Below, piece by piece: positions 1-64,000 of a stretch of DNA of 64,000 nt. Source of the stretch: Branchiostoma lanceolatum (lineage: Eukaryota; Chordata; Leptocardii; Amphioxiformes; Branchiostomatidae); assembly GCF_035083965.1 (NCBI RefSeq), contig NC_089723.1, positions 39,005,193 through 39,069,192 of the forward strand, read 5' to 3'. Each line of letters starts with the position of its first letter. Position 1 is the stretch's first letter. The notes beneath the pieces are model-generated. The model had not been told where the DNA came from, did not search any database, and was given only the letters and a program-made list of their open reading frames with translations. The position numbers and the translations under genes are program-made.

Positions 1-135
1 GTTATGGCCACTTTTGATGCAGCATATGTGTACCCACACATTGCCAGAACATGTGTTATTGTGCTGCTATACCTTACGTGATATTTCTGACGCAATTTGT
101 AATGATATAAATATGTAACTGCTCAGAAAACTCAG

Positions 136-3100
136 GAGGAGACGGACCCGTGATCATTGAGCCGACAGCAGACCCTAGAAGCATTGTTGGGATGCGCACG
201 ATCGGCCCCGTGTTGGACACTATGGAGCAGGGAGGAGGGCTGACACTGGACCAGTGTGACCTCACCAGGAGCCAGCTGACACCTGCAGAGCGGGTCCGGG
301 ACATGGTGAAGATGGTAGAAAATCGTTACCAGCTGGGAGCCGCGGTGGAGATGTGCTGCCCGGAGTTTGTGGATCTCTTCTTGAGAGAGAAACGAGGTAC
401 GCCGTCAACTAGTCTTCTCATGTCTGTGAGACTATAACTGGGTAATATTCATTGAACCGCTTCTTCAACAATGTCCATAATCCGTTAACGTTATTTGAAA
501 AGGTGAATCGCTATATTTATAACAGTGTAGATCAAATTGTGCTATGTATTACACAGAAGAAACCCTGCAAATATATCATGAATAAACAAAGGTTCAAACA
601 AACAAAGTAAATCCATTCATGATTAAGAATATTATTCCTCAACTTCTTGCAGGAAAAGAGCTTGTCATCCTCCACACAGGCGACTACACCGACAAGTTCG
701 TCCTCCCTCTCCAGACAGCCGCTTTAGACGCAGGTGTGCCTTGCCACACGGAGACCATCACGTCTGCTGACTCCATCACGGAGAAAACAGTGGAACACCT
801 GCTCAACACGAACAACAGAATGGCTATTCTAGTCATCACGCCAGACGCCCTAGATCAGAAGCACTGGTCACACCTCGACTACGAGTTCCCAGTTCGGAAC
901 GAGAAGCTGCTGCTGCCCATCCTTCTGTACCCGATGCAAGATAAGAACAAAGAGCGGATGGTCCGGGTGCTCCAGCAGCGGTCTCCCGTTCTTGCCAACA
1001 TGGAGCGTGTGGAGATCCAAATGGAGGGGAGGGAAGTGTCAGAAACGAAGCTACAGGAAATCATTCAGAAGGTATCTATGACTTATTCACGCCAACCAAA
1101 TGCCTTACTTTCTTCATGAATTGACTCCTATGTGAGTGTTTCAAGGTTTCTAACGTATTTCCCCCAATCTTTTCCAGGTCATGACCGATGTAGAAAGGGG
1201 TGAGTTTCAAGCATCGACATACTACTTGAATTTTTTTCAATGATTATAATTTTGAAATGAATTTCAAACATGAACAGTAATTAGATCGTTGTAAGAAGGA
1301 CAGATAGAAATTCAATTTTCAAACGGACAGGAAACACACTGTGCCCAACATTCGCCACTTATCTTACCTGTCATCCTCTGTAGATTTTCGGCTAGTACTG
1401 GAAAGCATCTTCAGTAGGCTGGACGAGACAGATGTAAGACTACTTCTGCGGGCGTGGTCAGCGCGTACTAGTCAAGACGATATTCCAGAGATCAAGACTC
1501 CACAAGACCTGAAGAGGGCAATGGAGAAGACTGGGTGTTTCAGAACTGGTGGGTACTGGCTTCTCTCTTACACAGCGTTGTAAAATGGCACGTATAGTGC
1601 ATGTCTAAAACCAGGCTTCAGGTTGAAGCGTTCTCGAATTTAAGAAGCCAATTCACAATTACATCCCCCACTTACGGTCGACTCCGTGTCTAACCTTCCT
1701 ACAAAACGTGGAATGGTTTCCAGGTTGAAGGTTTATAAGAATGATCAGCGGTTTTACAATATTATCAAATGAACGTCTTTCGTTCCTTAGGTGACCTTGG
1801 AGTGCTGGAGAAGGACATGATGGCGGCTGGGATCAGCTTTCCTCTTATCATGCGAGACATTCCAGGTTGGTTTGACGTTTATCAGAGTAGCGTTAGGATG
1901 TGTCACAAAAAGAATGAATGTTTACCTTATCTGAGATAAAACAATGGCAGCTTTGAACAAAAATATTAGCGAGACCAATGGAAAAGATCAAAACATCGAT
2001 GGAACTGTTGCAATTTTGTAGACCGAGATTCTTGCATGGAACATGGCGTCATCTGAACGACCATTGTTCACTTTGATTGCAACGCGCGATCAGCAGCTGT
2101 CTTTCTATGTTCTTGAAAGCACCCGGTAGACTCTGTCCACATTGTCATTTCTTCATGATAATTACCTTGACCATTTAAACATTTTTAAACCTAAAAAAAG
2201 TAGTAGTTGACTATAACAGTGGATCAGCAAATGTTGATATAAACATTTTCTTAGGAGTTCCAGACGAGTTCCAGTACCCGAGGACAAGAGAGGCTTCAGT
2301 AGGACCAGCGGGCGGAGAAGTGGAGATTCCCGGTTTTGTCAAGCTTGTTGTACCACCAGGTGCCCTTCAGCAAGAAACGATGATTACCGTCTCAACCGTG
2401 GACGTTCCCGGCATATTGAGGGGTCCTGAAGGCGTCAACTGGATCTCCGGCTACCCCTGGTCCCTGGGTAAGGACGCATGTCCACGGGAGCTACTGGATC
2501 AGGTGCTGTTCTCCCCCGCTGTTGATGTCAACCTACACGGTGCACAGCTGAGTGGACCCGTAGAGCTAGAGACGTGGCGGCCTTCTGGTTCTGAAGGGAT
2601 GGGGTGTCTTCTACTAAAGCATCACGACGGAGAAGGCTGGACAGATATCACAGCTTCGACCATACACCATATACATCCGGACAGAATATCCATTTCCCTT
2701 CAGACCTTCAGTCCTCTGGATATTGTGTGGGCTCCAGTAGACTTGGCAATCAGAGCAGGAAAGTGGATGGTGGATGCGCTGTGTTCAAGAACTTTGAATT
2801 GTTCGTTTGCAGCGTACGTCGAGCCCGACGTAGAGGACGCGGAATTCCACGTTGTCTGCAGAGACCAGAGTGTAGAAACAGAGGAGTATCTCCAGAACTT
2901 CTGCAGATGTGGAAAGAACGATGCAAGATTCGATCTTTATCATGGAGATAAAATACATGTTGCTGTTGATGTTCATGGAGGCCAAACGAAGACCGAGGCT
3001 ATGGAACTACGGGCCACACACTGCTGTGATGGAAATGGTCAAAACGTTCAAATGCTGTTGGATAGGCCCCGTGGAAAGCGCCTTAAAGGTGAAGTAGTCG

Positions 3101-6047
3101 TCAGGACAACTCAGGAGAGAACTGTATGTCAGTTCGTTTTCAAGGAGGTAAGGTTTAACCCCGCACCTCCCCCCCCCAAAAAACCCCAAACGTAGCCTTT
3201 ACCGACTTCCGGGCGTGTGTTATTATTTTGGCGAAGGCTAGATTTCGCTTAATAGTTGCTTCATTATAACACAATTTTTACTCACCATTCGTTATCATTT
3301 TTATAGAATAAGTTAAACATTCTGTGTGTTTCCTGTTTCAGAGAGGCAATGCTATACCTAGTGAGTACATTTCGTTCTACTTAAACGATAGAATTAAAAA
3401 GCTAGCTCTTCTAGTTTTTACCTGAAATTCTCTGATATAGTTCAGAGACAGGTCTTTTAAGATATTTGCCATTGTAAATTGCCAAAGAGTGTAGTGTGAT
3501 TTGATTTGCCGTTTTGGGTGATAAGTACAAAGAGTTGATTACTTACCTATCATATCGTTACATAAATACCATGTCATGGTTGAGTTTAATCTATTACAAG
3601 ATCAACTAGTGTGAACAAGTTTGTTACATTTTCAGACCAACAGGATAAGCGTTATTTTTGTTGCCAAGGCCAACGAATTCTAATATCTCACTTGCTAGTG
3701 TTACGTTACGTTACGTAACGGGGGGTGCCCAAATATCGGACGTTTTTTTACGCGCTGGAACTCACGGCGCTCCATATTGCTGGTTGCCAGAGAATGGTCA
3801 TGTTTTAATGAATGAATTTTGAACACATTCATCTAAAGACCATACTTGGACAAAAAATGTATTCATACTGTTCATGGGCCCTTCATGCTCCGCGTTACAT
3901 GCGGAAGACGCTGTGAGACATTTTCACGAATGTACCTTCTGATTTAGTGCTACGCCAGATGTGCCTAACTTCCTACGCTTTGGTAATTTTGCTCTCTTCG
4001 GAAGTTAGTGATGAAGTTAGGGAAATGTAAATTAGGCTTGAAGTCTGCTATATTCTAGCTTTCTTTTGACCGGAAAATTTTGACTGTGTGCACTTCTCAC
4101 GTCATGTGAGAAGGGCTATATCTAGCGCATCCCAGTTCATGTTTCCACGGGAAATAGGCTACTACGCGGCCCGACGTACGTATTGAATACGGCCCGACTT
4201 ACGAAATCATTACGAATAAACGACACCGCTGACATCAACAATACTCCGTCTACTTATTGGGAAATATCTTCGCCATCTCTGTATTCAGTTTCCTTTTCAT
4301 AGACGGTACCAATCACATGTTAGAGCGTAAGAAAACTGTGCGTTGAATCGTTTCGCCACGATCGCGGCCCCCAAAAATGGCGGGAAAACAACGTCGTCAG
4401 ACGACAGCAATGTTTACGTTGTTTTTCTTTGGTCGGTTTTCTTCTCAACAAACACTTAAAGACCCAAATTTTTAGTGTTTTATGAAGTTATTTTTCTTAT
4501 GTGTATGATAGCTGTGTGACTTATGTATCTGCTTGGCACAGGTCGTATATTTAGGTGCCGGGCCGTCTAGCTACGCAGTGACCCTCTACTTAGCGCTACC
4601 ATCATTATTGTCAAAATACTACTTTTCGACAAAACAAGAAATGAATATGTACACATATGTTTTGAATGTAAATGACAATCATGTGCATGAACTTGGGTTA
4701 TTTACCTTCCTTATCAGCTTAGTTATTGGACACAAACACGGCGTACTTATGCAAAATAAGATCAGTAAAAAATCCGTGCGATGTTAGGGCGCGTCGATGT
4801 TCGGGCGCCCCCCGTTATATTCTTACTTCATGTCATGCTTTACGACAACGATTCCCCACATCATAGTACTGTAACATTATCTGTATCAGGTGCATCGGTG
4901 CGTCCCGCCGCGGCAGAAGACATCGACAGTGGCGTTTTGGTGTCAGAAGGTGCTGATGGAGAATCTCATCAAGGGCCCACGTTAGAGTTAGGTACAGGAT
5001 ATTTGTACTGCTTTTTGCTTTTAGTCAGGAATGAGACATAATCTTTAAAACAAACTGTCCGCTTTATTATGAGAGAAGCAGGACCGGGATAAATGGAGAG
5101 AATTGGTCCCGTGCATCCTCGCCACTAGTAGATGATGATGATCTTAAAACAACAACAAATATCTTGGGGTTCACGGCCAATTTTCTAATGTCAGTATTAC
5201 ATAGTCATTACGCACAAAGACGCCTCAGGCGATTGACGCACTGACGAGCAACGTCGAAGGCTAGGAAAACCTATACTTATGCTTACATCCGTTACTGCTC
5301 AGTTGCCATTGAGCGCATTCACTAAAATAACTAATGACTAGATGCTGCGATGTAAAAGAAATCACCAAAGTCTTGCAGTGGTCATGGTAGCATAAATAAA
5401 GTGAGCCCGATAAAGAAATCTATTGGAAGGAAGCTTCTTACGTGTTTTTTTGGTACCCTTTTGCTTTTTCTTTATACGTACGGTAAGGTGGCAACATCAT
5501 GTCAAAATTTCGAAAAAGATTTGTCTCTTGCCCACCACTCTCTCCAGGGCCGGTAAAGAAGACAAAATGTCCTCACCAAGACGATGGAGCAGGGCCAAGT
5601 GGCGTGAACACACACTCAGGTGCAAAAGGTACTAAAAATATCTACCCTATTCTTGATAATTCACATATAAATTGATTGTTGAAAATCACATATATTTGAC
5701 GTACAAACTTCAAAGGGAGATTTTTGTCGCTAATTGTATTTCAATATTACCCTAAGTTGTAATGACATTGATTTATGTTTGTTCCAGTTGACGTGCAAGA
5801 GGAACACTTTGATGACGTAATCAAAGAAGCCAGTGCCAGGTGGGACGACCTGGCCCGGAAGTTGGGGTTCAACAAGAACACAATCGACGTGATCCGAGAC
5901 TTGAAGCCGGACCAGGACAGCAGGTGCAGGGAAATGCTGGAGAGGTGGAGTAACAGGGAGGGACGGGAAGCTACTCTACAGGCTCTGCAGCAGGCACTCA
6001 TCGACATTGGTGAAACTCGGACAGCACAGAACCTAGGAGGATTGTAG
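136..6047 (+). CDS. CARD/TIR/DED/ZU5/UPA/death-domain protein (5' end missing)
   Basis: Ten exons join in consistent phase: 136-396, 653-1071, 1178-1199, 1384-1548, 1791-1865, 2255-3147, 3342-3360, 4890-4991, 5548-5628, 5788-6047 (TAG). They encode 765 aa, and upstream exon(s) lie outside because exon 136 starts in phase 1. Domains, in window residues: about 20-87 a CARD-like helical fold; 88-227 a TIR/SEFIR-like domain (ILHTGDYTDKF start, ITEKTVEHLL, ILVITPDAL, HWSHLDYEF, LLLPILL); 235-315 a DED (DFRLVLESIF, EIKTPQDLKRAME); about 325-430 a ZU5 (GGEVEIPG, LVVPPGAL, FSPAVDVNLHG); about 435-612 a UPA-like beta region; 613-680 low-complexity linker from three small exons; 680-765 a classic death domain (WDDLARKLGF, CREMLERW). 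ZU5-UPA-DD is the core known from UNC5, PIDD and ankyrins. The added CARD, TIR and DED point to an innate-immune or cell-death scaffold in the cytosol. The domain calls are by eye; the CARD and UPA calls are the weakest. Confidence 0.82.
3718..4815. mobile_element. 1.1-kb non-autonomous DNA transposon with TA duplication
   Basis: The ends are inverted repeats: ACGGGGGGTGCCC at 3718 and its near-complement GGGCGCCCCCCGT ending at 4815. TA flanks both sides (3716-3717, 4816-4817). It lies in the intron between the 19-nt exon (3342-3360) and the exon at 4890 of the death-fold gene, ending 74 bp before the latter's acceptor. No transposase ORF is present. A shortened, inverted copy lies at 33191-33854. 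TA duplication and G-rich ends fit a Tc1/mariner-like or other TA-targeting MITE. Confidence 0.8.
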
Positions 6048-7290
6048 TCCTTGTTATTTCGTAAGACAAGATAAAGGTGATCTCCTTTTTATCTAGTACT
6101 TCTGCTCATCTACTCTAATGCAATTAGTTTCACAACTTTAAAATCAACTTGCCAAATGAAATGAAAGGAGGCCGACAGCATACCAAGTTCATCTTACATC
6201 ATATTGTATCTGAGAGGGATGTTAGTAGCTTAACCTCTCTTTCAAGTCTTTGCAATGATTACACGTGTTCTGATTCGCTTTTATTTTAAAGACGTCATGA
6301 TCTGATCAGCAGAGAAAGCTTGTCTTCTACTGACGTATGGTGTGAACAACAATGGGTTCCCTTTCGACATTTTGGTTGAAAAAATATTTGGTTGCATGAT
6401 GGTTAATTCAGCAAATCTCTACTATGTAGATCAGGTTTCTATAAGACTAATCTATTGTACATACTTGAAAATAACATCAATTTGTGACAGCAATTGACTT
6501 CCTGTTATTCTTATGATAAGCAGGTTTAGATTTATCGTCTCTGACAGCGTCAGATGTTTAAGACAGCATCCGTTATATTTGAACAGCAACTGTGAATTAG
6601 TATCTAAGAACAGGTGGAACTAGTATGTAAACGTCATATGTAAATGAGTACTTTAATAGATTGTCATTGAACGTTGAACTTCTTTCTTTAAATCTGAGCT
6701 ATTTTGAACCTTTTGAACTGTTTTTTCTACGCAGTACCATGTCCTAGTCTGTACTAGACTGAACGACATTGGAAGTAGCAGCGTGTCTAAAATCTAGACA
6801 TTTTAGTGTCTCTAACGTTACTTGCATGTTGGGTCTTGTTTGTGTGTTCGAGTAGTTTTACATGTACATGTACATGTATGCAGAAACCTGAGATGTGTGT
6901 CCGGGTGAAATTGATATGGCATATCAAGGCAGGGTAATCACCGTTCCTATGTTATTGGGTCTTTGTGGTCGAAACTGCAGGCATAATGAGTATAGAAAAT
7001 GTACTATTTGGGTTAGGAGTACAAATAGTACGAAAATATTTTTTTAAGAATAAGAATGAGAATAAGATGGTATTTTTGTAATTGCTTGTCATAAATGTAA
7101 ATCCAATTGACATCAGACCTGCAACTAAAATTTTCATGTCACGTATCTCAGATTTGCAACTATATGCACCTATTCAACGAAGGAATTAATATCAGATAGC
7201 ATGCAGGTCAGACGGGTAATTGTCAGCCGTTGGTTAAATAAGCGCGGTTTACTCCTGGACCAAATGTCAACTTCAAGGATAGACATTGAA
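5999..7290 (+). repeat. 3' flank of the DD gene, source/partner of a recent duplication
   Basis: From the last about 48 bp of the DD exon (5999) through 7137 this DNA is almost identical to 11799-12937. The homology then continues, more diverged, from 7155-7280 to 26305-26400 on the far side of the 13-kb element. It contains no supported gene, only 3' UTR and intergenic DNA. Matching short ORFs in both copies (6343 and 12143 regions) are shadows of this repeat. Confidence 0.85.
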
Positions 7291-10285: not shown

Positions 10286-11578
10286 ATGGCTGGTAAGATT
10301 ACGAACTATTATTGACATCTTCTTAGTTTCACCATTGGTGTGTTGTTGGTTTATACCACCCCTAACTTTACAGACTGGACTGCCAAAGAAGAACTTTACC
10401 CTTACCGCAAGAATGGTAATACGTCACTCGAAGATGTTAACATCATTTGACGAAGATATCAATATTTAGGTCGCGGAACTCTAGACTCTAACTGACATGA
10501 TTTTTGGAATGATAGCGAACGAACAGAACAGAAAAGGACAAGTTGAAGAGTATGTTGTGCATGGTTGACCTTTTAAATAGTGTTCAACCATTCGCAACTT
10601 TTGTCCATTGTAAGTTGAGTTTATGGCTAGATTAGTTTAACATTCATTAACAGTGCAATGTTAACACTTCCTTTTACTCCCACAAAATCCGTAGAAACTA
10701 TAGAAGACTTGATTAGAAACAACTACACCCTTCTCACGAAGAGACTGCAAGTTGAAAAACTGATTCCGCACTTCATCGAGAGGCGATTTCTAGATTTTCC
10801 CGACAAGCAGATCGTCATGAGCAAAACAACCACGCCAGGCAAGGCCGAGGCTCTGCTGGAGCTCCTGGCTCAGAAGGGCTCTTGTAAGACCGAGGAGTTT
10901 GTGGAGATTTTGAAGAAAGCGGACCACCGGCATGTTGCAGATGAACTGAAAACAACGAGCACGCGAAATGAGACTACGAAAGGTAAGACCATGTTGATGT
11001 GATTATATGGATGACATCGGCGCACATTCGTCCGTTTAAAATAAGTTTTAATGCTGTAAATCGTACAAAGCAGCTGCGAAATGAGAAAATAAAATCTGTA
11101 AATTGCAACAAAATATTTGGAAGACGGATACTAATGTCTTGGAATAGGAAGAAGAAGATGTAAAAGAACAAAAATGAAGAATCTATTATTCGGTATACCA
11201 TACTCTGTGTGTTCTAGTTTTGTTCTTCCTTCCTTACCACGTAAATTTCATAATGAAGGTAACTTTTTTTTGCCAGAGTCGCAATGACATTGATTTATGT
11301 TTGTTCCAGTTGTCGCTGACGTGCAGGAGGAACACTTTGATGACGTAATAATCAAAGAAGCCAGTGCCAGGTGGGACGACCTGGCCCGGAAGTTGGGGTT
11401 CAACAAGAACACAATCGACGTGATCCGAGACTTTAAGCCGGACCAGGACAGCAGGTGCAGGGAAATGCTGGAGAGGTGGAGAAACGGGGAGGGAAGGAAA
11501 GCTACTCTACGTGTCCTGAAGCAGGCACTCATCGACATTGGTGAAACTCGGACAGCAGAGAACCTAGGAGGATTGTAG
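10286..11578 (+). CDS. CARD-death domain adaptor (CRADD/RAIDD-like architecture)
   Basis: Complete five-exon model, phases all consistent: 10286-10292, 10374-10415, 10516-10549, 10654-10982, 11310-11578 (TAG), giving 226 aa. The ATG sits in CAACATGG, and the first exon holds only seven coding bases. Residues about 43-127 form a CARD (TIEDLIRNNYTLLTKRL, LIPHFIERRFL, AEALLELLAQKG, EFVEILKKADHRHVADEL). Residues about 142-226 form a DD (WDDLARKLGF, IDVIRDFKPD, CREMLERW, LKQALIDIGETRTA). Human CRADD has the same order and similar length (199 aa) and links a death-receptor or PIDD DD to a caspase CARD; that role is inferred here. The DD exon is a near copy of 5788-6047 with one extra isoleucine codon. 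The neighbouring ZU5-DD protein is a plausible partner. Confidence 0.88.
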
Positions 11579-11798
11579 TCCTTGTTATTTCGTAAGAAAA
11601 GAAGAAAAGGTTGATTTAGTGACCTACTTTTTAACTAGTAGTTCTGCTACAATAATACAATTAGTTTCACAACTTTAAAATTACGTCACCAAATGAAATT
11701 AAAGGAAGCCGATAACTTATCAAGTTCATCTAACATTATATTGTATCTGAGAGGGGTGTTAGTAGCTTCACCTCTCTTTGCAATAATTACACATGTTC
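11579..11798 (+). repeat. Older diverged copy of the DD-gene 3' flank
   Basis: This segment is a diverged version of 6048-6270, sharing TCCTTGTTATTTCGTAAGA and ATATTGTATCTGAGAGGG. It breaks at ACATGTTCT, where a second, nearly identical copy of the DD exon tail begins. It therefore belongs to an earlier duplication layer than the DNA that follows. Confidence 0.75.
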
Positions 11799-12937
11799 TC
11801 ATCGACATTGGTGAAACTCGGACAGCACAGATCCTACAAGGATTGTAGTCCTTGTTATTTCGTAAGACAAGATAAAGGTGATCTCCTTTTTATCTAGTAC
11901 TTCTGCTCATCTACTCTAATGCAATTAGTTTCACAACTTTAAAATCAACTTGCCAAATGAAATGAAAGGAGGCCGACAGCATACCAAGTTCATCTTACAT
12001 CATATTGTATCTGAGAGGGATGTTAGTAGCTTAACCTCTCTTTCAAGTCTTTGCAATGATTACACGTGTTCTGATTCGCTTTTATTTTAAAGACGTCATG
12101 ATCTGATCAGCAGAGAAAGCTTGTCTTCTACTGACGTATGGTGTGAACAACAATGGGTTCCCTTTCGACATTTTGGTTGAAAAAATATTTGGTTGCATGA
12201 TGGTTAATTCAGCAAATCTTTACTATGTAGATCAGGTTTCTATAAGACTAATCTATTGTACATACTTGAAAATAACATCAATTTGTGACAGCAATTGCCT
12301 TCCTGTTATTCTTATGATAAGCAGGTTTAGATTTATCGTCTCTGACAGCGTCAGATGTTTAAGACAGCATCCGTTATATTTGAACAGCAACTGTGAATTA
12401 GTATCTAAGAACAGGTGGAACTAGTATGTAAACGTCATATGTAAATGAGTACTTTAATAGATTGTCATTGAACGTTGAACTTCTTTCTTTAAATCTGAGC
12501 TATTTTGAACCCTTTGAACTGTTTTTTCTACGCAGTACCATGTCCTAGTCTGTACTAGACTGAACGACATTGGAAGTAGCAGCGTGTCTAAAATCTAGAC
12601 ATTTTAGTGTCTCTAACGTGACTTGCATGTTAGGTCTTGTTTGTGTGTTCTAGTAGTTGTTTATGTATGCAGAGACCTGAGATGTGTGTCCGGGTGAAAT
12701 TGATATGGCATATCAAGGCAGGGTAATCACCGTTCCTATGTTATTGTGTCTTTGTGGTCGAAACTGCAGTCAAAATGAGTATAGAAAATGTACTGTTTGG
12801 GTCAGGAGTACAAATAGTACGAAAATCTATTTTAAGAAATGAAATAAGATGGTATTTTGTAATTGCTTGTCATAAATGTAAATCTAAGTGACATCAGACC
12901 TGTGACTGCAATTTTCATGTCACATGTCTCAGATTTG
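11799..12937 (+). repeat. Recent duplicate of DD exon tail plus 3' flank
   Basis: The start, CATCGACATTGGTGAAACTC, is the tail of a DD exon (to 11847 including a TAG) without the rest of the exon, so it is a DD-tail pseudo-fragment. The rest matches 6048-7137 with only scattered substitutions and a few small deletions. The match ends at CTCAGATTTG next to the 13-kb element. Confidence 0.85.
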
Positions 12938-13257
12938 AAAGGTGCTAGTCGCATAGAAGAGGGCCTGCATGGGGGAGTAGTGATTACGAATTACGCAACG
13001 TTTTCGCCGCCGATTACGAATTACGCTAAATTCTCACAGCTGATTACGAATTACGAGGCTTCCCAACAGGCTTCAAGACTTAACACGACGAACTTTCACC
13101 TCACATCTGAAATGGGCGGCCACATTTGAGCCCGATAAACACCACAGCTTGCTTATGAATGAAGAACTTTTATGGTGGAAATTTCTATTTTCGTGTATTT
13201 AGAAATGACAATGTGACGTTATAGAGGGACCTGTGCTATCACATACATGTTTAGTTT

Positions 13258-26769: not shown

Positions 26770-28036
26770 CTTTCCCCGATCCTTCTTTTAGGTCACTGGT
26801 CTATAATCGACGGGGACGCAGCCGTATGCCTTCCGCCTTTCCCTGCATGTAAAGTATATGTTAGGGTGCCCTATGCTCTGGGCACGTGTCCAAACTATAC
26901 TGCAACTTTGTCCTTTTCACAATTGATAAGAAGCTGGGAAGTGGATCAACCAAGGTTATGATAAGTCACTTGATTTCTCTGTTCGGTAAAGCAGTCCTTG
27001 GTGTGGCGAAGCAAGTGATTCTGCAGGCATTGGTCACTGCAGTACCCCACAAATCCGCATCTAAATGGCAACAGGAAAACTCTTGAATACAATATAGAGA
27101 AAAAAAAACCCATGGCTACACCAGATGGCTAGCGAACGTAAAATCGTGTGATAACCAAAGAACACGTGGCAGCCGGTGATAGCTTGACTTACTTAATGAC
27201 TCATGGCGGATGCCAGTCCGACGGTCAAGTATTTAATCACAAGAGTGTTGGTTCTTCTTACTATTTCTACAGGACTCGGCACCGTACGGGAATATTGAGT
27301 AAACAAGGGACAGTAGCTGGCAGATTTTTGCTAACATGGTGATGTTATGGATAGACCAGATGTGCCTGAGTTCTGGCAGTGCAAGGATAGACTTTGAAAT
27401 CCTTTGACCTCTTTTACTGATCTGCAATCTTCCTTTAAAAAAAAAGAAAGAAGAAAAATAAAGGCTTTGACTTGACGTATAAGAAGGCAAGGTACGTAAA
27501 CTCACTGACTTGCTCTCGCTGCGACACTGACTTGCTCTCGCAATATTCCGTAAAAAAAAAGAAAAAAAGAAAAATGAAGGCATTCGATGAAAAATAAAGG
27601 CTTTGACTTGAATTGAATTGGAAGAAGGCAAGGTAAGTGAACTCACTGACTTGCTCTCGCCATGTCTTGTAATTTTGTCTGACGGGCCCAATATCTGCTC
27701 TTGTCAAGACTCGCCTCCGTGTCATGCCTCCTGCTTGTGGAATCCAGGTTGGTGTGCTGGCGGCTGGTAAACTTTTATCGAGTGTTGAACATGTGCCAGG
27801 ACTCTGGAATGTGACGAACACTATCCCACATGTTACCTGGCATGCTACCAGCATGTTGCGCGCGCTGATACCTAGGTTACCACGTCCATATCTGGCAAGC
27901 ATATCACAACACGTTTCCCACGGAAGCTTTGGGACTTTAGGTGAACCTCTTCGCCAGTCTAATTGTCGGTTTGTCTGCATGGATCAGTGCGTTGTTCTCC
28001 CAATTTCTGTTAGAAGTTTAAAAGTTGCTGTTCAAA
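26770..28036. other. Upstream region of the MYND gene with a tandem duplication
   Basis: ATAAAGGCTTTGACTTGA with GAAGGCAAGGTA and ACTCACTGACTTGCTCTCGC occurs twice (about 27440-27520 and 27590-27660), with poly-A-rich stretches between. The stretch 27670-28020 has long frames on both strands but no recognisable domain. It most likely holds the promoter and 5' UTR of the gene starting at 28037. Confidence 0.45.
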
Positions 28037-31000
28037 ATGGCGTCTGCCTTTTCAAGTTCTGCAACGGCAGAGGGGGAATCAACAGCACGAGTGACAACTC
28101 CAAGCGGCAAAGTTTCATCCGACCAATGCTCAGCATCTCCCGACCAAGACGGCCCACTACAACACGATGACGAGAAGGATGACTGTATGTGCCCAGACTG
28201 CATTGAGAACATCTGCGGAGTTTCGGAAATGTTGATCAAAGCCTTTCTGTCCAACACACATGATGTCACAGCAAAGTCACGGGGACGTTTGAATGTCCAC
28301 CAAAAAGAACAAAGAAAAGAAGACGCTAGAGGGAAAGTAGCGGGAGAAGATGAAGGTCAAAATCATACAGGGAGCGGACAGGTTCTGAAGACGTGCCCGG
28401 AAGATGAAAGTGACGATAGTGAGGATGACAGCGACTGCAGTGATGACACAGACAGTGAAGAGTGCGGCATACTGTTCCTCCCAACCAAGTACCAAGCCAA
28501 GCTGTTCATGTCTTTCTCCGAAGGGATACTCCGGAGTCTTCTGACTCAACTTCTCAACGTTACCGTAAGTTCCAAACGCGACCCGAGGCCATGTCTTTAT
28601 CCTAAAGGGTTTCCAAAGCTAGACAACGTCGACATCGGTGAGCTGATCTACCTCATGACGTACTACGAGCCCGCGGCGATCAAGGTAGCGGAGCTTACCC
28701 CCGATATTCTACCTTCAGTCGAAGTCTTACTGTTGGAGGCAACGGGAGCGGAAATCAGGGCCAAGGCCCTCAGTGGAGAAGGCCACGCCATGATGTGTCA
28801 AGTCTGTGTAAACGAATCTGAGGAAGGTGCCGCCATTGGTAAATCGTGTTTAGAATCAGTGGAAGGTGCCGCTATTGGTGAATCATCGGATGAAGAGTAC
28901 GACGAACTGTGCTACTACAGTCTGCTTCTCCTGTGCGTAAAGAACGCTGTCATGACGATCATCCCGGAGAAACTGGCGTTCCTAGTTCAGCAGAAGGATC
29001 GGATGACGCAGTCCTTGATCGGCCTGATGCACAGCGGTCTCCTCCCGACCATGTGGACGGCTGTGATGATCTGCTTGTACGTCGCAGAGATGGGAGGCGA
29101 GCGCTGTGCCGGGATACTCAGGAACCAGGGTCCGCTGGCGGCTGCGGAGAAACTACTGCTGATTACAGGTGACTTTAAAGCTTCATATCGGATTTCTTTA
29201 ATCTCCAAGCAGATGTTTTGGAAGCAAAATCGTAATTGTCAGCCACGATCTGCAGGGCCGTGCGGCAGATTGTGGCCGGCAGTTACGATTTTGCCCTCGA
29301 AAGATCTGCTAGGAGGTGGGGATTTCATGCTTTGCAGTACATTGGAATATACTGGCAGAAAATATTTCTGATGTCCTGTGATGAGGGAAGCATAGATCCA
29401 TAGTAGATCAGTGTGAACATTTCTTCCTTTCGAGTTCAAGTGTGTGAAGTTGACATGCCTTGTTTGAACTGCATTCCAACTGTCTGGCTGGGGAATGTAT
29501 TAAGCGTCCTTTTTCTCGCTACATGGGTCTTGTCTACGAGAATTGGTGCACCAAACTATTAATGTCTGCAAGGTAGTTTGATACTGAATCTATAAAGCTA
29601 GGTGTTCTACATCTATTAATCTTTGCAATATGTAACGTTGTAAAGTTATAATGTCTAATTAAGATTTCTAATTAGCTTTATATACAAAGCGTGTGTGAAA
29701 GTTTCAGCGCTGCAGAAAATAGGCATACCAAAAAATCTTATACAAAGTCATACTCAAAGCTTAGTTGGGGAATTTATGATGACATAGACGTATGATAGAT
29801 ATTCCATAAAAAGTATATTGAATGTGTTATTTCATCACACATTCACAGAAGCCTGGAAACAGTGCGCGTTCACTCTGTGTTTGCGGAAGCACACAGATCT
29901 ACTGGTGAAGGCGCTACGACAGCCAGGGTCTGTGGACTTCTTTCAGCAGAAGTCACGCGAGGACAGGTTTGTTTGTTTGCTTGGCATAACCGGTAAACCA
30001 CCTTAAGGCGTAACATAAAAGCTTTGTGCAGTATCAAAGTACAAGCTGCACAAAACCGGACTGTAAGATTTGAGCTCAGTACGTACTGACACCGGGATGA
30101 CCCCCTACTCTTTCAATTAGTGTAGTGGGCTTTATAACATGCTCAAGGTGTGGCTCTCCTCAAACACGGAACCACGTAAAGTCCCATATACGAAAACGTC
30201 CCTAGCCATATCTATGTACCCATTTTCACCTAAGTCGTGTAAGGAATTAGGTGTAAAGTGCATTTCCCAAAGGCACAACGTTGGGGCCTGCTAGGGATTC
30301 AAACCCAGAACCTTTAGATCCTAAGTTCACAACCCTGACCACAGGACCATCTTGCCTCCACCAGGTTACTGCTGAGACACGGACACCAGGAGTGCCTCAT
30401 GACGGAGGCACTGGATGACGTCACCGACGTCTGCCCATCCTGGCCAATCACGTGCTCCTCAGCTCGATGCTGGAGGAGTGAGGAGGCGGGACGGCCTTTC
30501 AGGGGATGTGAGAGGTCGGTATAACTGATGAACGCTCGTAATTTATGGACAGCTATAACTGACCTTTTGCCTGTATGTTTCTAATTCCATACCGGCATCT
30601 GTTACTGAGTTTGTATCTTTTTTTTAATGTCATACCTGGGCCGCGAAATCGTTTGATACGGGTGTTCCGGACCGTGTGATAATTTTCCGCGCGTGTCACA
30701 CGGGGTTCTAAGTTGTATCACACGGGCTTCCATAGAATATTTAGAATGCATGTCGAGCGCGCCGGTTGCGCCGCCGTCGAAAATTCGAATACCGGATTCG
30801 GAGGTTAGAATCAATGTTGTTACAGTTTTTTGTTCGATGACACAAAACTCGATCAACTTCTGTCGCATTCCGCATCCGTGTGTTTTCTCGGGTGGGTATG
30901 ATATAAATAAAATACAACACGGTGTATTCCGCATCACCCTCGGTCCCATCCCTCCCGCGTGTACTACGGCCGTAGGGCGATCCTACCCGCGGTTGGGCTG

Positions 31001-33190: not shown

Positions 33191-33854
33191 ACGGGGGGTT
33201 GGGGGGGTTGGGGGGTGTGCCCCAAGATGCCACGCGCCCTAACATGGCATAGATTTATTACTGATCTTATTTTGCATAAGCATGCCGTGTTTGTGACCAG
33301 TGACTACGCTGATAAGGAAGGTTAATAAGTCAAGTTCATGCACATAGCTGTCATTTTCATTTAAAACATGTGTACATATTCATTTCTTGTTTCGTCAAAA
33401 CATGTATTTTGACAATAATGGTGGTAGCGCTGAGTACAGGGTCACTGCGTAGCTAGACGGCCTGGTGCCTAAATATACGACCTGTGCCAAGCAGATACAC
33501 ATCTATCATACACATAAGAAATATCACTTCATAAGACATTTGAAAATGTGGGTCTTTAAGTGTTTGTTGAAAAGAAAACCGACCAAAGAAAACAGAAAAA
33601 AGTTAGGCACACTATCTGGCTTAGCACTAAATCAGAACGAACATTCTCGAAAACATCTAACAGCATTTTCCGCTTTTTACATCAGATCATGAAGGGCTCA
33701 TGAACAACATGAATGCATTTCTTATCCAAGTATGGTCTTCAGATGACTATGTTCAAAATTCATTCATTAAAACCTGACCACTCTCTGGCAACCAGCGTTG
33801 GAGTGCCGTGAGTTCGAGCGCGTAAAAAAAGTGACATCTTAGGGCACCCTCCGT
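33191..33854. mobile_element. Inverted, internally deleted copy of the 3718 transposon
   Basis: GCCTGGTGCCTAAATATACG and ACCTGTGCCAAGCAGATACA are complements of 4540-4560. The copy ends in GGGCACCCTCCGTTA and starts ACGGGGGGTTGGGGGG. About 440 bp of the interior is missing. TA remains on the right flank only. Confidence 0.8.
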
Positions 33855-33944
33855 TAAGCCACTAATTTCCTGCATTCTGAGGGATATATTTTGTGACGTA
33901 GAGTTTTCCCTCTGTCACATCCTCATTTAAAAAGTTGAAACACA

Positions 33945-34316: not shown

Positions 34317-34383
34317 CTTGAACTATGCTGGTGAGAACACTGCTTAATATGCTTGCCTGTTCATTACAGACTTAAGTGTTACC

Positions 34384-35484
34384 ATGGCAAGAAATGGCTC
34401 AGATGACGTCGAAAGTAGTTTGGAAGGGAAGTTTGCTGGCAGACTTAAAACAACGAAACGCTTTCAGTGTGGGGAGTGCAGCAAGCAGTTCAGTAAGCTG
34501 AGTGCTCTGAAGACTCACACACGAATTCACACTGGTGAGAAGCCCTACAGGTGTGAGGAATGTAGCAGACTGTTCAGTCAGCTGGGTGGTCTGAAGATAC
34601 ACATGCAGACTCACACAGGTGAGAAACCCTACAGGTGTGAGGAGTGCAGCAAGCAGTTCAGTCAGATGGGTGCTCTAAAGACACACATGCGGACTCACAC
34701 AGGGGAGAAACCCTACAGGTGTGAGGAGTGCAACAAGCAGTTCAGTCAGCTGGGTTATATGAAGATTCACATGCGAACTCACACTGGGGAAAAACCCTAC
34801 AGATGTAAACAATGCAGCAGGCGGTTCACCACCCAGGGTCATCTAAAGACCCACATTCGGACTCACACAGGTGAGAAACTTTTCAAGTGTGAGGAGTGTA
34901 GCAAGCAGTTCTGTCAGCAGGGTTATTTGAAGACTCACATGCGGACTCACACTGGGGAAAAATGCTATAGGTGTGAGGAGTGTGGCAGGCAGTTCAACAC
35001 CCAGAGTAATCTGAAGTCACACATGCGGTCTCACACGGGGGAGAAACCCTACAGGTGTGAGGAGTGCAGCAGGCAGTTCAGTGAGCTGAGTAGCTTGAAA
35101 AAACACATGCTGACTCACACTGGAGAAAAACCCTACAGTTGTGAGGAGTGCAGCAGGCAGTTCAGTCAGGTGGGTCATCTGAAAAAACACTTGCGGACTC
35201 ACACTGGGGAGAAACCCTACCAGTGTGACGAATGTAGCAAGCAGTTCAGTCACATGTCTGTTTTGAAAAATCACATGCGGTCTCACACTGGGGAGAAACC
35301 CTACAGGTGTGAGGAGTGCGGCAGGCAGTTCAGTCGACTGCATGCTCTGAAGATTCACATGCGGATTCACACAGGTGAGAAACCCTACAGGTGTGAAGAA
35401 TGCAGCAGGCAGTTCCACACCAAGGGTAATCTGAAGTCACATATGCGGACTCACACAGGGCAAAAGAGTGTGGCAAGCACCTGA
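34384..35484 (+). CDS. C2H2 zinc-finger protein with 12 tandem fingers
   Basis: The 366-aa frame starts at ACCATGG (34384), 14 bp after a TTCATTACAG acceptor (exon from 34370), so 5' UTR exon(s) probably lie upstream. Twelve C-x2-C-x12-H-x3-H fingers run from about residue 29 to 360 with TGEKPY linkers, beginning [10 protein letters not shown] and ending [10 protein letters not shown]. There is no KRAB, BTB or SCAN domain; about 27 acidic/basic residues precede the first finger. Such arrays bind DNA and usually act as nuclear transcriptional regulators. Finger contact positions vary ([32 protein letters not shown]), so the target would be a long composite site. Near-identical finger backbones suggest internal duplication. 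Confidence 0.93.
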
Positions 35485-38376: not shown

Positions 38377-39027
38377 AACGATAGGACTGAGAACACCAGC
38401 TTTATACCAAAACTCTGAATGGATATGTTAATGAGGTAAAGACAATTTGGGATGTCTTGAAGTAGTCTTCAAAAAGAAGATTAATTCAAGACAAAGTTAT
38501 GCCAATAGTTCAATTAGCTACTGTTGTTTTAGTACAGTAACTAAATGTTGCTTGTCCGGGGGTGGGGGGTGGTGGGCAGAAAGAAAGGTACAAGGAACAT
38601 TGCAGAAAGAGCGCTAACCGCTACTCCTCTGCCATTTACCACCATCTAAAACACAACCAGGGACACTCATTCAATTTCGAATCCACGGACATCCTAGATC
38701 GTGAAGAACGCTGGTTCGAACGGGGAATTAGAGAAGCAATATATTATATGAGAGGATGTACAACCCCGCCCTCAACAGGAAAGGCGGTCTACGCGTTCAA
38801 CTTTCAGGCACCTGGGATAATGCACTGCCCACCACCCCCCACCCCCGGACAAGCAACATTTAGTTACTGTACTGAAACAACAGTAGCTAATTGAACTATT
38901 GGCATAACTTTGTCTTGAATTAATCTTCTTTTTGAAGACTACTTCAAGACATCCCAAATTGTCTTTACCTCATTAACATATCCATTCAGAGTTTTGGTAT
39001 AAAGCTGGTGTTCTCAGTCCTATCGTT

Positions 39028-39071
39028 AGTCACTGACGAAAGACAGTGGATACTGTCTGAAACGTCTGACT
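39028..39071 (+). ncRNA. Hammerhead-ribozyme-like motif, right arm
   Basis: The order fits a minimal type I hammerhead: AGTCA (stem I 5'), CTGACGA core, an extra A, AGACAG/CTGTCT (stem II, loop TGGATA), GAAAC, GTC (cleavage site), TGACT (stem I 3'). Stem III is only the palindromic ACGT, as reported for Penelope-like hammerheads. The one unpaired A after the core departs from consensus, so activity is uncertain. Confidence 0.5.
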
Positions 39072-40538
39072 GTTTCAAAATCTTATCCAGTTGCTTGAGT
39101 AATTATTTTTGGCACATAATAGCTAGTTCTATGATGACTCACTTTGTCGACTCAAACAACATCTTGCATGACCTCCAGCATGGGTTTAGACATAGCAGGT
39201 CATGTGAATCTCAACTCTTATCCCTCACTGACGATCTGGCTCATAACAGAGAAAAAGGAATCCAGACTGATCTCATAATCATGGACTTCGCCAAAGCCTT
39301 CGATAAAGTTCCACATCTCAGACTGATACATAAACTTCAGTTTTTTGGCATTACAGGTAAAACTCTAGTCTGGACTCAAAATTTCCTGCAGGGCCGTTCG
39401 CAAACCGTAGTGTTGGATGGAGAGTGCTCCGATTCTGTACCCGTAACCTCTGGTGTTCCCCAGGGTTCGGTCTTCGGGCCAATCCTGTTTCTCGCATACA
39501 TCGACGACTTGCCACAACATGCTGCACATGCAAAAGTTCGGCTCTTCGCCGATGACTGCATCTTGCAGATGAGTGTGAAAGAAAAGGCTGACTGTGAAAA
39601 ACTCCAGAGTGACATAAACGAAATCTGTAGCTGGGAGAAAAAGTGGTTGATGGCATTCAACCCGTCAAAATGTGAGGTGATGTCAGTCCCGGCTTCCAGA
39701 AATCCAATAATATTCCCCTATACCCTCCATGATCATCCTCTGGCAAAGGTAAGTTGTACCAAATATCTTGGCCTTCACATTTCCTCAAAATTGACCTGGG
39801 GCAATCACGTCGAAGCAACAACTTCGAAGGCAAACAGAACCATAGGGATGTTGAGACGCTGCCTGAGAATCTCCAGCACAGCGGCCAAGGAGAGAGCCTA
39901 CATGGCTCTTGTAAGACCTGTCATTGAGTATGGCTGTTGTGTTTGGGATCCCCACACCAGGGAACAGGTGAGGAGTGTTGAGATGGTTCAGCGCAGAGCA
40001 GCCCGATACGTGAGTAATGATTACAGACGCACCAGTTCAGTCACTGCTATGCTGCGAAACTTGGGCTGGCAAACGCTAGAACTGCGCCGAAAGATTGCCC
40101 GCCAAGTCACCCTGTATAAGATCATCCATGGTACTGTTTATGTTCCACACACGACCATGATTGCCCCGGTGGTTCGATGCTCCCGCCGCACCAATCACTC
40201 CCAAACATTGCAGGCCATCGCGGGCAGGAACAACTACTATAGGCTCTCGTTCTTCCCTCGGACCATCAAAGAGTGTAACGAACTTGAGCCTGGTGTGGCG
40301 GAGGCGGGGTCCCTCTCCCAGTTCAAAACCGAACTCAGTTCAAATACATGTATTACTAACTCACTAAATTTACTTGTCCTGTCCTTTGCACACACAAATT
40401 CAGTTGTTTATGTTCCTTAGTGCCTCTCCTTTATTTTCCCTTCGTTTTACTTGTTCCGGACACTTGTGTTGTATCTAACCCATGCGCAACTGCTGATAAT
40501 CTCAGATATGAGGCTAAGCAGTATAGAAGAAGAAGAAG

Positions 40539-62650: not shown

Positions 62651-64000
62651 ATGGCGACCGTCTATCCATGTGTTGTGTGCAAGACCAACGTGAGACCAAA
62701 ACAGGAGGCCCTGCAGTGTGACAACTGCAACAGGTGGCAGCACCGGACTTGTCAAAAAGGTAAGGTCTTCCATAATATTATTATATTATGCCATAATTTC
62801 CACAAAGCCCCCGACATCGGAAGGTTAACGTTGCTGGGGTTTTCAATTGAACTTTTGATTGAATTGGATTGACATGTAGTGTTTTTTTTGTTTCTGACAG
62901 ACTTTCAAGGAAAGGGTCATCATCTAACATCAAACTTTATGTTCTGTTTCAGAAATCACCCAAAAGGTCTACTGGCAGGTGGTGCACGAGAAGGTAGTGC
63001 TGGAGTCCTGGCATTGTAAGGACTGCACCACCCCATCAGAACCAATGCAGGTGGACGAGCCCAGTATCCTACTCAGCCCACCTTCTGGCGAGAGCACCCG
63101 CGTGTCCGACCAGCTGGACGGAAGCTACCGTACCGAGGACTTGAGCGCTCCGTACGGTCCGCCCCCTGACCGTGAGGATGAGCTGCAGGAGGAGGATGGA
63201 AGCTACCGTACCGAGGACTTGAGCGCCCCGTACGGTCCGCCCCCTGACCGTGAGGATGAGCTGCAGGAGGATGAGGATAGCCTACCTGACTTCAGCCACG
63301 ACAGCATCGCCCCGGTGGTCGAGATACAGGAGCGGTCCTGCCAGCATCCGGCGGATGAAATGATGGAAACCGACCCGGACACAACCCAGACCCACCGGAT
63401 GACCTACACCATTGTGGCGGAGTCGTCACAGAGAGGGGGAGACATGCTTTTCAGTAGCATTGGGTACAGCTACACAGAAAAGAAGAGGGAAGGAGGGAAA
63501 GTCTACTGGCGGTGCAGTAAGCGGTACAAGAAAAACGTAGACTGTCGGGCCACCATGATCCAGTCTGGAGAGACATTTGAACCTGGGCGACATGACCATA
63601 ACCACACCCCGGAGCTGGGCACCACACTCAAGGCCCAAGTTGGCGTCGAAATCAGGAGTAAGGCACCCCAACAGATTTTCGACGTGGCGTCCAACTTAGT
63701 GGACGACGTCCTGTTGGAGGCAGGAGATCGGCCGGGAATGCCCAGCCAGGCAGCCCTCCTTCGGCGGGTCAACCGGGCAAAGGCGAAGATGCGTCCTGCG
63801 GAGCCGCAGGATCTGGATTTCGAGCTGGCCGACGAGTACACCCCAGACGACTTTCTAATTGGGGACATTGAGGTGCTGTGGGGGAGGAATCAGGAGAAGG
63901 CAAGGCACCTGATCTTCGCTACCCCGTACCAGCTGAAATTACTGTCGGAAGCGCGGCGCCTGTATTTGGACGGGACCTTTAAGGTCGTGAGGGAGCCGTT
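62651..64000 (+). CDS. PHD finger-FLYWCH-MULE transposase-like protein (3' end missing)
   Basis: Exons 62651-62759 and 62953->64000 join in phase 1. The start ATGGCG in GCCATGG is a strong Kozak site. Residues 7-61 form a C4HC3 PHD-like finger (C7, C10, C23, C26, H31, C34, C58, C61) split by the intron. An exact 26-aa duplication follows ([20 protein letters not shown], units 63117-63194 and 63195-63272). About residues 200-262 form a FLYWCH finger ([28 protein letters not shown]). The end, [10 protein letters not shown], is the start of a MULE transposase core with its first aspartate. It may be an autonomous Mutator-like transposase or a domesticated one; the catalytic rest is outside the window. 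Confidence 0.85.

What the first reader, a model, noticed from the sequence alone, without database searches (positions are those of the whole stretch)
136..6047. A six-module death-fold scaffold: CARD-like, TIR-like, DED, ZU5, UPA, DD
Splice phases link all modules into one frame. UNC5 and PIDD carry ZU5-(UPA)-DD, but adding a TIR-like domain, a DED and a CARD-like fold in one chain would let a single protein nucleate several homotypic assemblies. I know of no named animal protein with this order. It could be a TIR-input, caspase/DED-output immune hub.
Basis: partly seen in the sequence, partly recalled or inferred. Interest (0 to 1): 0.88.

Follow-up and report, generated by a model that had tools for sequence, protein, structure and literature searches.

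The report
Amphioxus GTPase-TIR-death-domain scaffold gene
A stretch of amphioxus DNA encodes the back half of a large signalling protein that chains several immunity and cell-death domains behind a GTPase switch; it belongs to an amphioxus family whose front and back ends seem to be swapped freely, and it may cut itself to release its output end.

Summary
The chain is real, in one frame and not chance, but it is the 3' part of a larger gene. Ten GT-AG exons give 764 aa. The public Branchiostoma lanceolatum model P0024 (1409 aa) is the same gene and continues upstream into a ROC-COR GTPase module. The first exon starts at 127, not 136. Death is certain. ZU5-UPA and TIR are sub-threshold by sequence but supported by fold: the window's own TIR exon folds at pLDDT 82 and its first 19 Foldseek rows are TIR. 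DED is likely; the CARD part is a weak, truncated likeness. The six-module order recurs in P0001, P0023 and P0028; in P0025, P0026, P0027 and P0029 a GT4 glycosyltransferase replaces the last DD. Introns bounding modules are phase 1, as in exon shuffling. The ZU5/UPA border has the F|S motif of PIDD/NLRP1/CARD8: Ser or Cys in 29 of 29 readable rows. A CARD-DD gene with a copied DD exon lies 4 kb downstream. Best reading: a GTPase-gated, probably self-cutting death-fold platform. ROC-COR-TIR proteins are known elsewhere, so this is a new variant.

The parts
127..396 (+). first exon in the window: CARD-like module (phase 1-1); upstream ROC-COR exons lie outside the window
   Evidence: acceptor at 127 from homologue joins; Pfam CARD 0.041 as a piece; 13-member profile puts an MBP-ASC chain first at 0.0089
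653..1071 (+). TIR exon
   Evidence: AlphaFold2 of 655-1071 with 8 homologues pLDDT 82.1, pTM 0.80; first 19 Foldseek rows and first 17 VIA rows are TIR; no Pfam match of its own
1178..1199 (+). micro-exon closing the TIR cassette (VMTDVER)
   Evidence: matches VMTDEER in P0005, P0016, P0025
1384..1548 (+). DED-like module, first exon
   Evidence: Pfam DED 3.9e-3 as a piece; 7 of 12 members match, best 1.5e-6, below cutoff
1791..1865 (+). DED-like module, second exon
   Evidence: same frame and homologues as above
2255..3147 (+). ZU5 (2255-2712) and UPA (2713-3147) exon
2707..2712 (+). Phe465-Ser466, predicted self-cleavage bond at the end of ZU5
   Evidence: F in 28 of 29 and S or C in 29 of 29 readable rows; motif of CARD8/NLRP1/PIDD
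2620..2625 (+). His436-His437, candidate helper histidine 29-30 residues before Ser466
   Evidence: His at the first position in 28 of 29 readable rows
3342..3360 (+). micro-exon after UPA
   Evidence: present in P0024
4890..4991 (+). linker exon
   Evidence: present in P0024
5548..5628 (+). linker exon, skipped in P0024
   Evidence: similar linker text in paralogues
5788..6047 (+). death domain and stop
10286..11578 (+). neighbouring CARD-DD gene (exons 10286-10292, 10695-10982, 11310-11578; 187 aa), possible partner
   Evidence: Pfam CARD 2.5e-10 and Death 3.2e-17, both above cutoff; frame and splice sites checked

Best explanation
The window holds the 3' part of a Branchiostoma lanceolatum ROCO-type gene whose protein runs ROC-COR, CARD-like, TIR, DED-like, ZU5, UPA, DD. 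SHOWN: exon chain and frame, predicted TIR fold, death domain, ZU5-UPA likeness, ROC-COR in the public model of the same gene, conserved cleavage-site motif, phase-1 cassettes. INFERRED: the ROC-COR GTPase, with variable N-terminal parts in paralogues, is the input switch that gathers several chains. The CARD-like, TIR and DED-like domains then form a clustered homotypic platform. ZU5 cuts itself from UPA at F465|S466, as in PIDD, NLRP1 and CARD8, and the halves stay together until the N-terminal half is lost or rearranged; the freed UPA-DD recruits DD partners, for example the CARD-DD protein encoded 4 kb downstream or a caspase with a DED-DD prodomain. In paralogues the releasable tail carries a GT4 glycosyltransferase instead of a DD.
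For: One frame across ten exons. P0024 is the same gene with COR-A 8.6e-11 (above cutoff) and partial Roc 7.1e-6 (26.7 bits, cutoff 27) upstream. ROC-COR lies before the CARD-like module in 17 of 18 P proteins that have that module. TIR fold. ZU5-UPA-DD fold. Cleavage motif: F 28 of 29, S 19 plus C 10 of 29, His 28 of 29, compared with CARD8/NLRP1/PIDD in PMC3210808 (passages). Same core with DD or GT4 tails. CARD-DD neighbour. Amphioxus Caspase-1/2 has a DED and a DD prodomain (PMC3196919, passages).
Against: No transcript or protein data. P0024 lacks the P-loop, as do 5 of 17 paralogues with ROC-COR plus CARD-like, so GTP binding is not shown for this gene. Cleavage, GTP switching and DD pairing are untested. 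10 of 29 paralogues have Cys, not Ser, at the site. CARD-like, DED-like and TIR stay below Pfam cutoffs. The P0001 model is poor overall (mean pLDDT 59) and its ankyrin match is piecewise (rmsd 20 A, TM-score 0.16-0.21). The neighbour's closest solved relatives are RIPK1, NRADD, FADD and NOD1, not CRADD.
Confidence: 0.6

Rival explanations
1. Passive adaptor: a ROCO scaffold that only holds homotypic domains together; ZU5-UPA is structural, as in UNC5 and ankyrin, and is not cut.
For: The nearest fold matches are ankyrin ZU5-UPA-DD, which are not known to me to be cut (recalled); 10 of 29 rows have Cys at the site.
Against: UNC5b has Leu where the cutting proteins have Phe (PMC3210808, passage), whereas 28 of 29 rows here keep Phe and 29 of 29 keep Ser or Cys next to it.
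Confidence: 0.2
2. TIR effector: clustering by ROC-COR or DD switches on a NADase in the TIR, and the death-fold parts only drive assembly.
For: The nearest TIR folds are bacterial ones, among them an NAD-consuming TIR, 8g83; the Glu in W..YEF is kept in 8 of 9 aligned members and in 12 of 12 that fit a pattern, out of 20 TIR sequences.
Against: HMMER puts the neighbouring variable position (D, A, E, T, S), not that Glu, against the bacterial Glu; which register is right is open, and residues 75-77 have pLDDT under 50. P0020 has Lys there. That this bacterial Glu is catalytic is recalled.
Confidence: 0.12
3. Two neighbouring genes read as one: a ROC-COR-CARD-TIR gene and a DED-ZU5-UPA-DD gene.
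For: Models that begin at or near the DED exist (P0002, P0004, P0005); P0024 and P0001 read the TIR-DED join differently from the paralogues.
Against: P0005 begins inside the TIR's last helix and runs through the micro-exon text into the DED; nine P models (P0001, P0016, P0023-P0029) carry TIR followed by DED, P0024 being this gene itself.
Confidence: 0.05

Closest known systems
Animal ROC-COR-TIR proteins: sea anemone Novel Gene 1 and Novel Gene 3, Aplysia ROCO TLR/MyD88-like (PMC5094078 section 11; PMC9334734 passages)
   Same: ROC-COR with a TIR_2-type TIR in one chain; NG3 also has Death
   Different: as described there with LRR, kinase, SH3, EF-hand, MBT or Armadillo parts; no ZU5-UPA, DED or CARD named
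PIDD1, NLRP1, CARD8 (self-cutting ZU5-UPA or FIIND)
   Same: ZU5-UPA followed by a death-fold tail; F|S motif at the end of ZU5 (PMC3210808 passages)
   Different: inputs differ: LRR or NACHT there (recalled), ROC-COR-CARD-TIR-DED here; cutting not shown here
UNC5 and ankyrin ZU5-UPA-DD
   Same: ZU5-UPA-DD order; best fold match ankyrin-B 4d8o
   Different: no TIR or DED; UNC5b has Leu at the Phe position
DAPK1 (ROCO family)
   Same: ROC-COR followed by a death domain (recalled)
   Different: kinase front; no TIR, DED or ZU5-UPA (recalled)
Bacterial AP-GTPase (ROC)-COR conflict systems with TIR or GT4 effectors (PMC8195603 section 15)
   Same: ROC-COR hub with TIR and, in paralogues, GT4 in the effector position
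   Different: bacterial ones carry N-terminal LRR and one variable effector; no death-fold chain or ZU5-UPA described there

Membership tests
ROCO (ROC-COR) proteins | COR domain after Roc | tested here: met
   P0024 COR-A 8.6e-11 above cutoff, Roc 7.1e-6 at 26.7 bits against cutoff 27; lies outside the window, known only from the public model
ROCO (ROC-COR) proteins | P-loop for GTP binding | tested here: inconclusive
   pattern absent from P0024, present in 12 of 17 paralogues with ROC-COR plus CARD-like; the P0024 start may be misread and the DNA is outside the window
TIR domain | TIR fold | tested here: met
TIR domain | Pfam TIR or TIR_2 above cutoff | tested here: not met
   window exon no match; TIR_2 in 2 of 9 members, best 8.8e-4, below cutoff, while an unrelated family (Retro_M) matched 3 of 9 at best 0.02; 2 of 10 further members, 0.006 and 0.045
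NAD-cleaving TIR | catalytic glutamate | tested here: inconclusive
   two possible registers
Death effector domain | Pfam DED above cutoff | tested here: not met
   best 1.5e-6 among 12 pieces, 31.0 bits in whole P0003 against cutoff 35.9
Death effector domain | DED fold | tested here: inconclusive
   helices at block pLDDT 64-83 over residues 201-270 of P0001; not covered by the fold lists
CARD | complete six-helix CARD above cutoff | tested here: not met
   only profile positions 14-60 of 85 match; best 21.0 bits against 23.9; fold at pLDDT under 50 in most of residues 1-69
Death domain | Pfam Death above cutoff and fold | tested here: met
Self-cutting ZU5-UPA (PIDD, NLRP1, CARD8) | ZU5 followed by UPA | tested here: met
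   fold matches of P0001; Pfam ZU5 19.5 bits against cutoff 21, so below it
Self-cutting ZU5-UPA (PIDD, NLRP1, CARD8) | Phe-Ser at the end of ZU5 | tested here: met
   F465-S466; F 28 of 29, S 19 and C 10 of 29 readable rows out of 34
Self-cutting ZU5-UPA (PIDD, NLRP1, CARD8) | self-cleavage of the protein | not testable with these tools
   needs expression and a Ser466 mutant

The most novel reading that the evidence does not exclude
Amphioxus evolved its own class of intracellular immune receptors: gated by a ROC-COR GTPase, with exchangeable N-terminal sensors, a fixed CARD-TIR-DED platform, and a self-cutting ZU5|UPA border that arms an exchangeable C-terminal output, either a death domain or a bacterial-type GT4 glycosyltransferase. 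It would be an animal counterpart of bacterial ROC-COR conflict systems that works by the NLRP1/PIDD release principle.
Probability: 0.3. Interest if true: 0.85.

Novelty: new variant of a known kind. Interest (0 to 1): 0.62.

Why it matters
It joins three separately known ideas (ROCO-TIR immune proteins, PIDD/NLRP1-type self-cutting, domain-shuffled amphioxus immunity) in one gene family, gives the shuffling a genomic basis in phase-1 cassettes, and makes a sharp bench prediction: one residue should control release of a death-domain tail here and of a glycosyltransferase tail in paralogues.

Tried and rejected
Rejected: the 136 start (homologue joins show 127). Weak or empty results: the window's TIR exon matches no Pfam family; a TIR profile against PDB sequences gives a bacterial TIR first, but only at 0.25; the DED-like profile against PDB sequences gives only unrelated rows; the CARD-like profile first put an unrelated chain (0.12) above an ASC chain (0.69) with 8 members, and the ASC chain first at 0.0089 with 13 members. 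The VIA list for the full-length P0001 model barely tests the CARD-like and DED-like parts, so nothing is concluded from their absence there. No whole genome is held. The FIIND-class paralogues (P0018, P0019, P0022) seem to have F-G, not F-S, at the matching end; this was read by eye and not aligned, and if right, self-cutting is not general to the TIR-bearing family. Homologue searches score only candidates that share exact words, about 8000 of them, so 'all hits are Branchiostoma' (21, 9 and 35 hits) is a statement about those searches. The brown-algal ROCO paper (PMC11378527, abstract and outline) was looked at and not used.

Full report
WHAT IS THERE. The window is amphioxus DNA, most likely Branchiostoma lanceolatum: the B. 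lanceolatum protein P0024 aligns with the window's spliced model in 787 columns, of which 736 are identical; the 51 others are the first residue, the TIR-DED join and one linker exon. Ten exons with GT-AG borders join into one frame of 764 aa ending at the stop at 6045-6047. Corrected, the first exon starts at 127 with a split codon, because homologues read ENSGGDGPV across the join. The window therefore cuts the gene and its 5' part lies upstream.

WHAT LIES UPSTREAM. P0024 (1409 aa) continues into COR-A (8.6e-11, above cutoff) and part of Roc (7.1e-6, 26.7 bits against 27), the core of ROCO proteins. Its first residues look like a misread start and the P-loop pattern is missing; 12 of 17 P proteins that have ROC-COR and the CARD-like module show that pattern.

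THE FAMILY. Three homologue searches returned 21, 9 and 35 proteins, all named as Branchiostoma, 44 ids in all. Mapped with profiles built here: CARD-like, TIR, DED, ZU5, UPA, DD in that order in P0001, P0023, P0024 (this gene) and P0028; the same with a GT4 glycosyltransferase instead of the DD in P0025, P0026, P0027 and P0029. A second class has DD-FIIND where this one has DED-ZU5 (P0017, P0018, P0022, P0038-P0040, and P0019 without the CARD-like part). ROC-COR precedes the CARD-like module in 17 of 18 proteins that have it; the exception, P0001, starts at that module. N-termini vary: ankyrin repeats in P0016, a DED in P0023, and by the Pfam accessions listed (names recalled) TPR in P0025 and P0028, SH2/SH3 in P0026, RING in P0027. 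All introns between modules are phase 1; the two phase-0 introns fall inside the TIR and the ZU5-UPA cassettes. That is the classical condition for exon shuffling (recalled) and explains the mosaic.

HOW IT MAY WORK. The end of ZU5 reads TF|SP. Of 34 alignment rows 29 cover the site (this gene is there twice, as the window and as P0024): before the bond Phe 28, Leu 1; after it Ser 19, Cys 10; a His 30 residues before the Ser in the window's numbering is kept in 28. CARD8 and NLRP1 cut themselves at SF/S with help of conserved Glu and His residues, PIDD at HF/S, and UNC5b has Leu for the Phe (PMC3210808, passages). I infer that this ZU5 cuts itself and that UPA-DD, or UPA-GT4 in paralogues, is the releasable tail. 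[quoted passage not shown] Possible partners: a CARD-DD gene 4 kb downstream (187 aa), whose DD exon and 3' flank are copies of this gene's last exon (5755-6274 to 11277-11802 at 86%, 5997-7159 to 11798-12940 at 96%), and an amphioxus Caspase-1/2 with a DED and a DD prodomain (PMC3196919, passages). CARD-DD is the domain order of CRADD/RAIDD, which PIDD recruits (recalled); by sequence the neighbour's nearest solved relatives are RIPK1, NRADD, FADD and NOD1, and no CRADD chain appears at E up to 1, so the likeness is of order only.

NOVELTY. ROC-COR with TIR_2, sometimes with Death, is published for sea anemones, with related combinations listed for oyster, Trichoplax, a centipede and sea urchin (PMC5094078, section 11), and for Aplysia (PMC9334734, passages). 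GT4 and ROC-COR systems with TIR or GT4 effectors are published for bacteria (PMC8195603, section 15). TIR shuffling in amphioxus was described in 2008 (PMC2575513, passages); Death and TIR (PF13676) are over-represented among dispensable genes of two amphioxus species (PMC12373286, passages). In ten library searches (one search aimed at self-cleavage) no listed title or abstract start describes the order ROC-COR, CARD, TIR, DED, ZU5, UPA. Several lists were cut, the library holds open PMC papers only, and supplementary tables were not open to me. Hence: new variant of a known kind. Interest 0.62: the architecture and its swap of tails would surprise a specialist, but each part has a precedent and the mechanism is inferred.

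Noticed in passing
10286-11578: A compact three-exon CARD-DD gene (187 aa) whose DD exon is 87.5% identical at protein level to the scaffold's last exon; P0002 joins a similar CARD and a DD to DED-ZU5-UPA.
   Followed up: partly
5755-7159 and 11277-12940: Segmental copy of the scaffold's last exon and 3' flank, in two blocks of different age (86% and 96% identity).
   Followed up: partly
3716-4813 and 33212-33856: Repeat shared in inverted orientation between the long intron of the scaffold and a site 29 kb away, 83-86% identity, probably a mobile element.
   Followed up: no
34348-35484: Array of about 12 C2H2 zinc fingers in one open reading frame.
   Followed up: no
38936-40420: Reverse transcriptase open reading frame (RVT_1 1.2e-28), a retroelement.
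   Followed up: no
62928-63998: Open frame running off the window with a FLYWCH zinc finger (1.1e-10).
   Followed up: no
P0038-P0042 (proteins): Related amphioxus ROC-COR-CARD-like-TIR proteins end in a GT4 glycosyltransferase; P0041 and P0042 carry GT4 at both ends.
   Followed up: partly
28022-29371: 449-residue open frame rich in acidic residues without any Pfam match at 1e-3.
   Followed up: no
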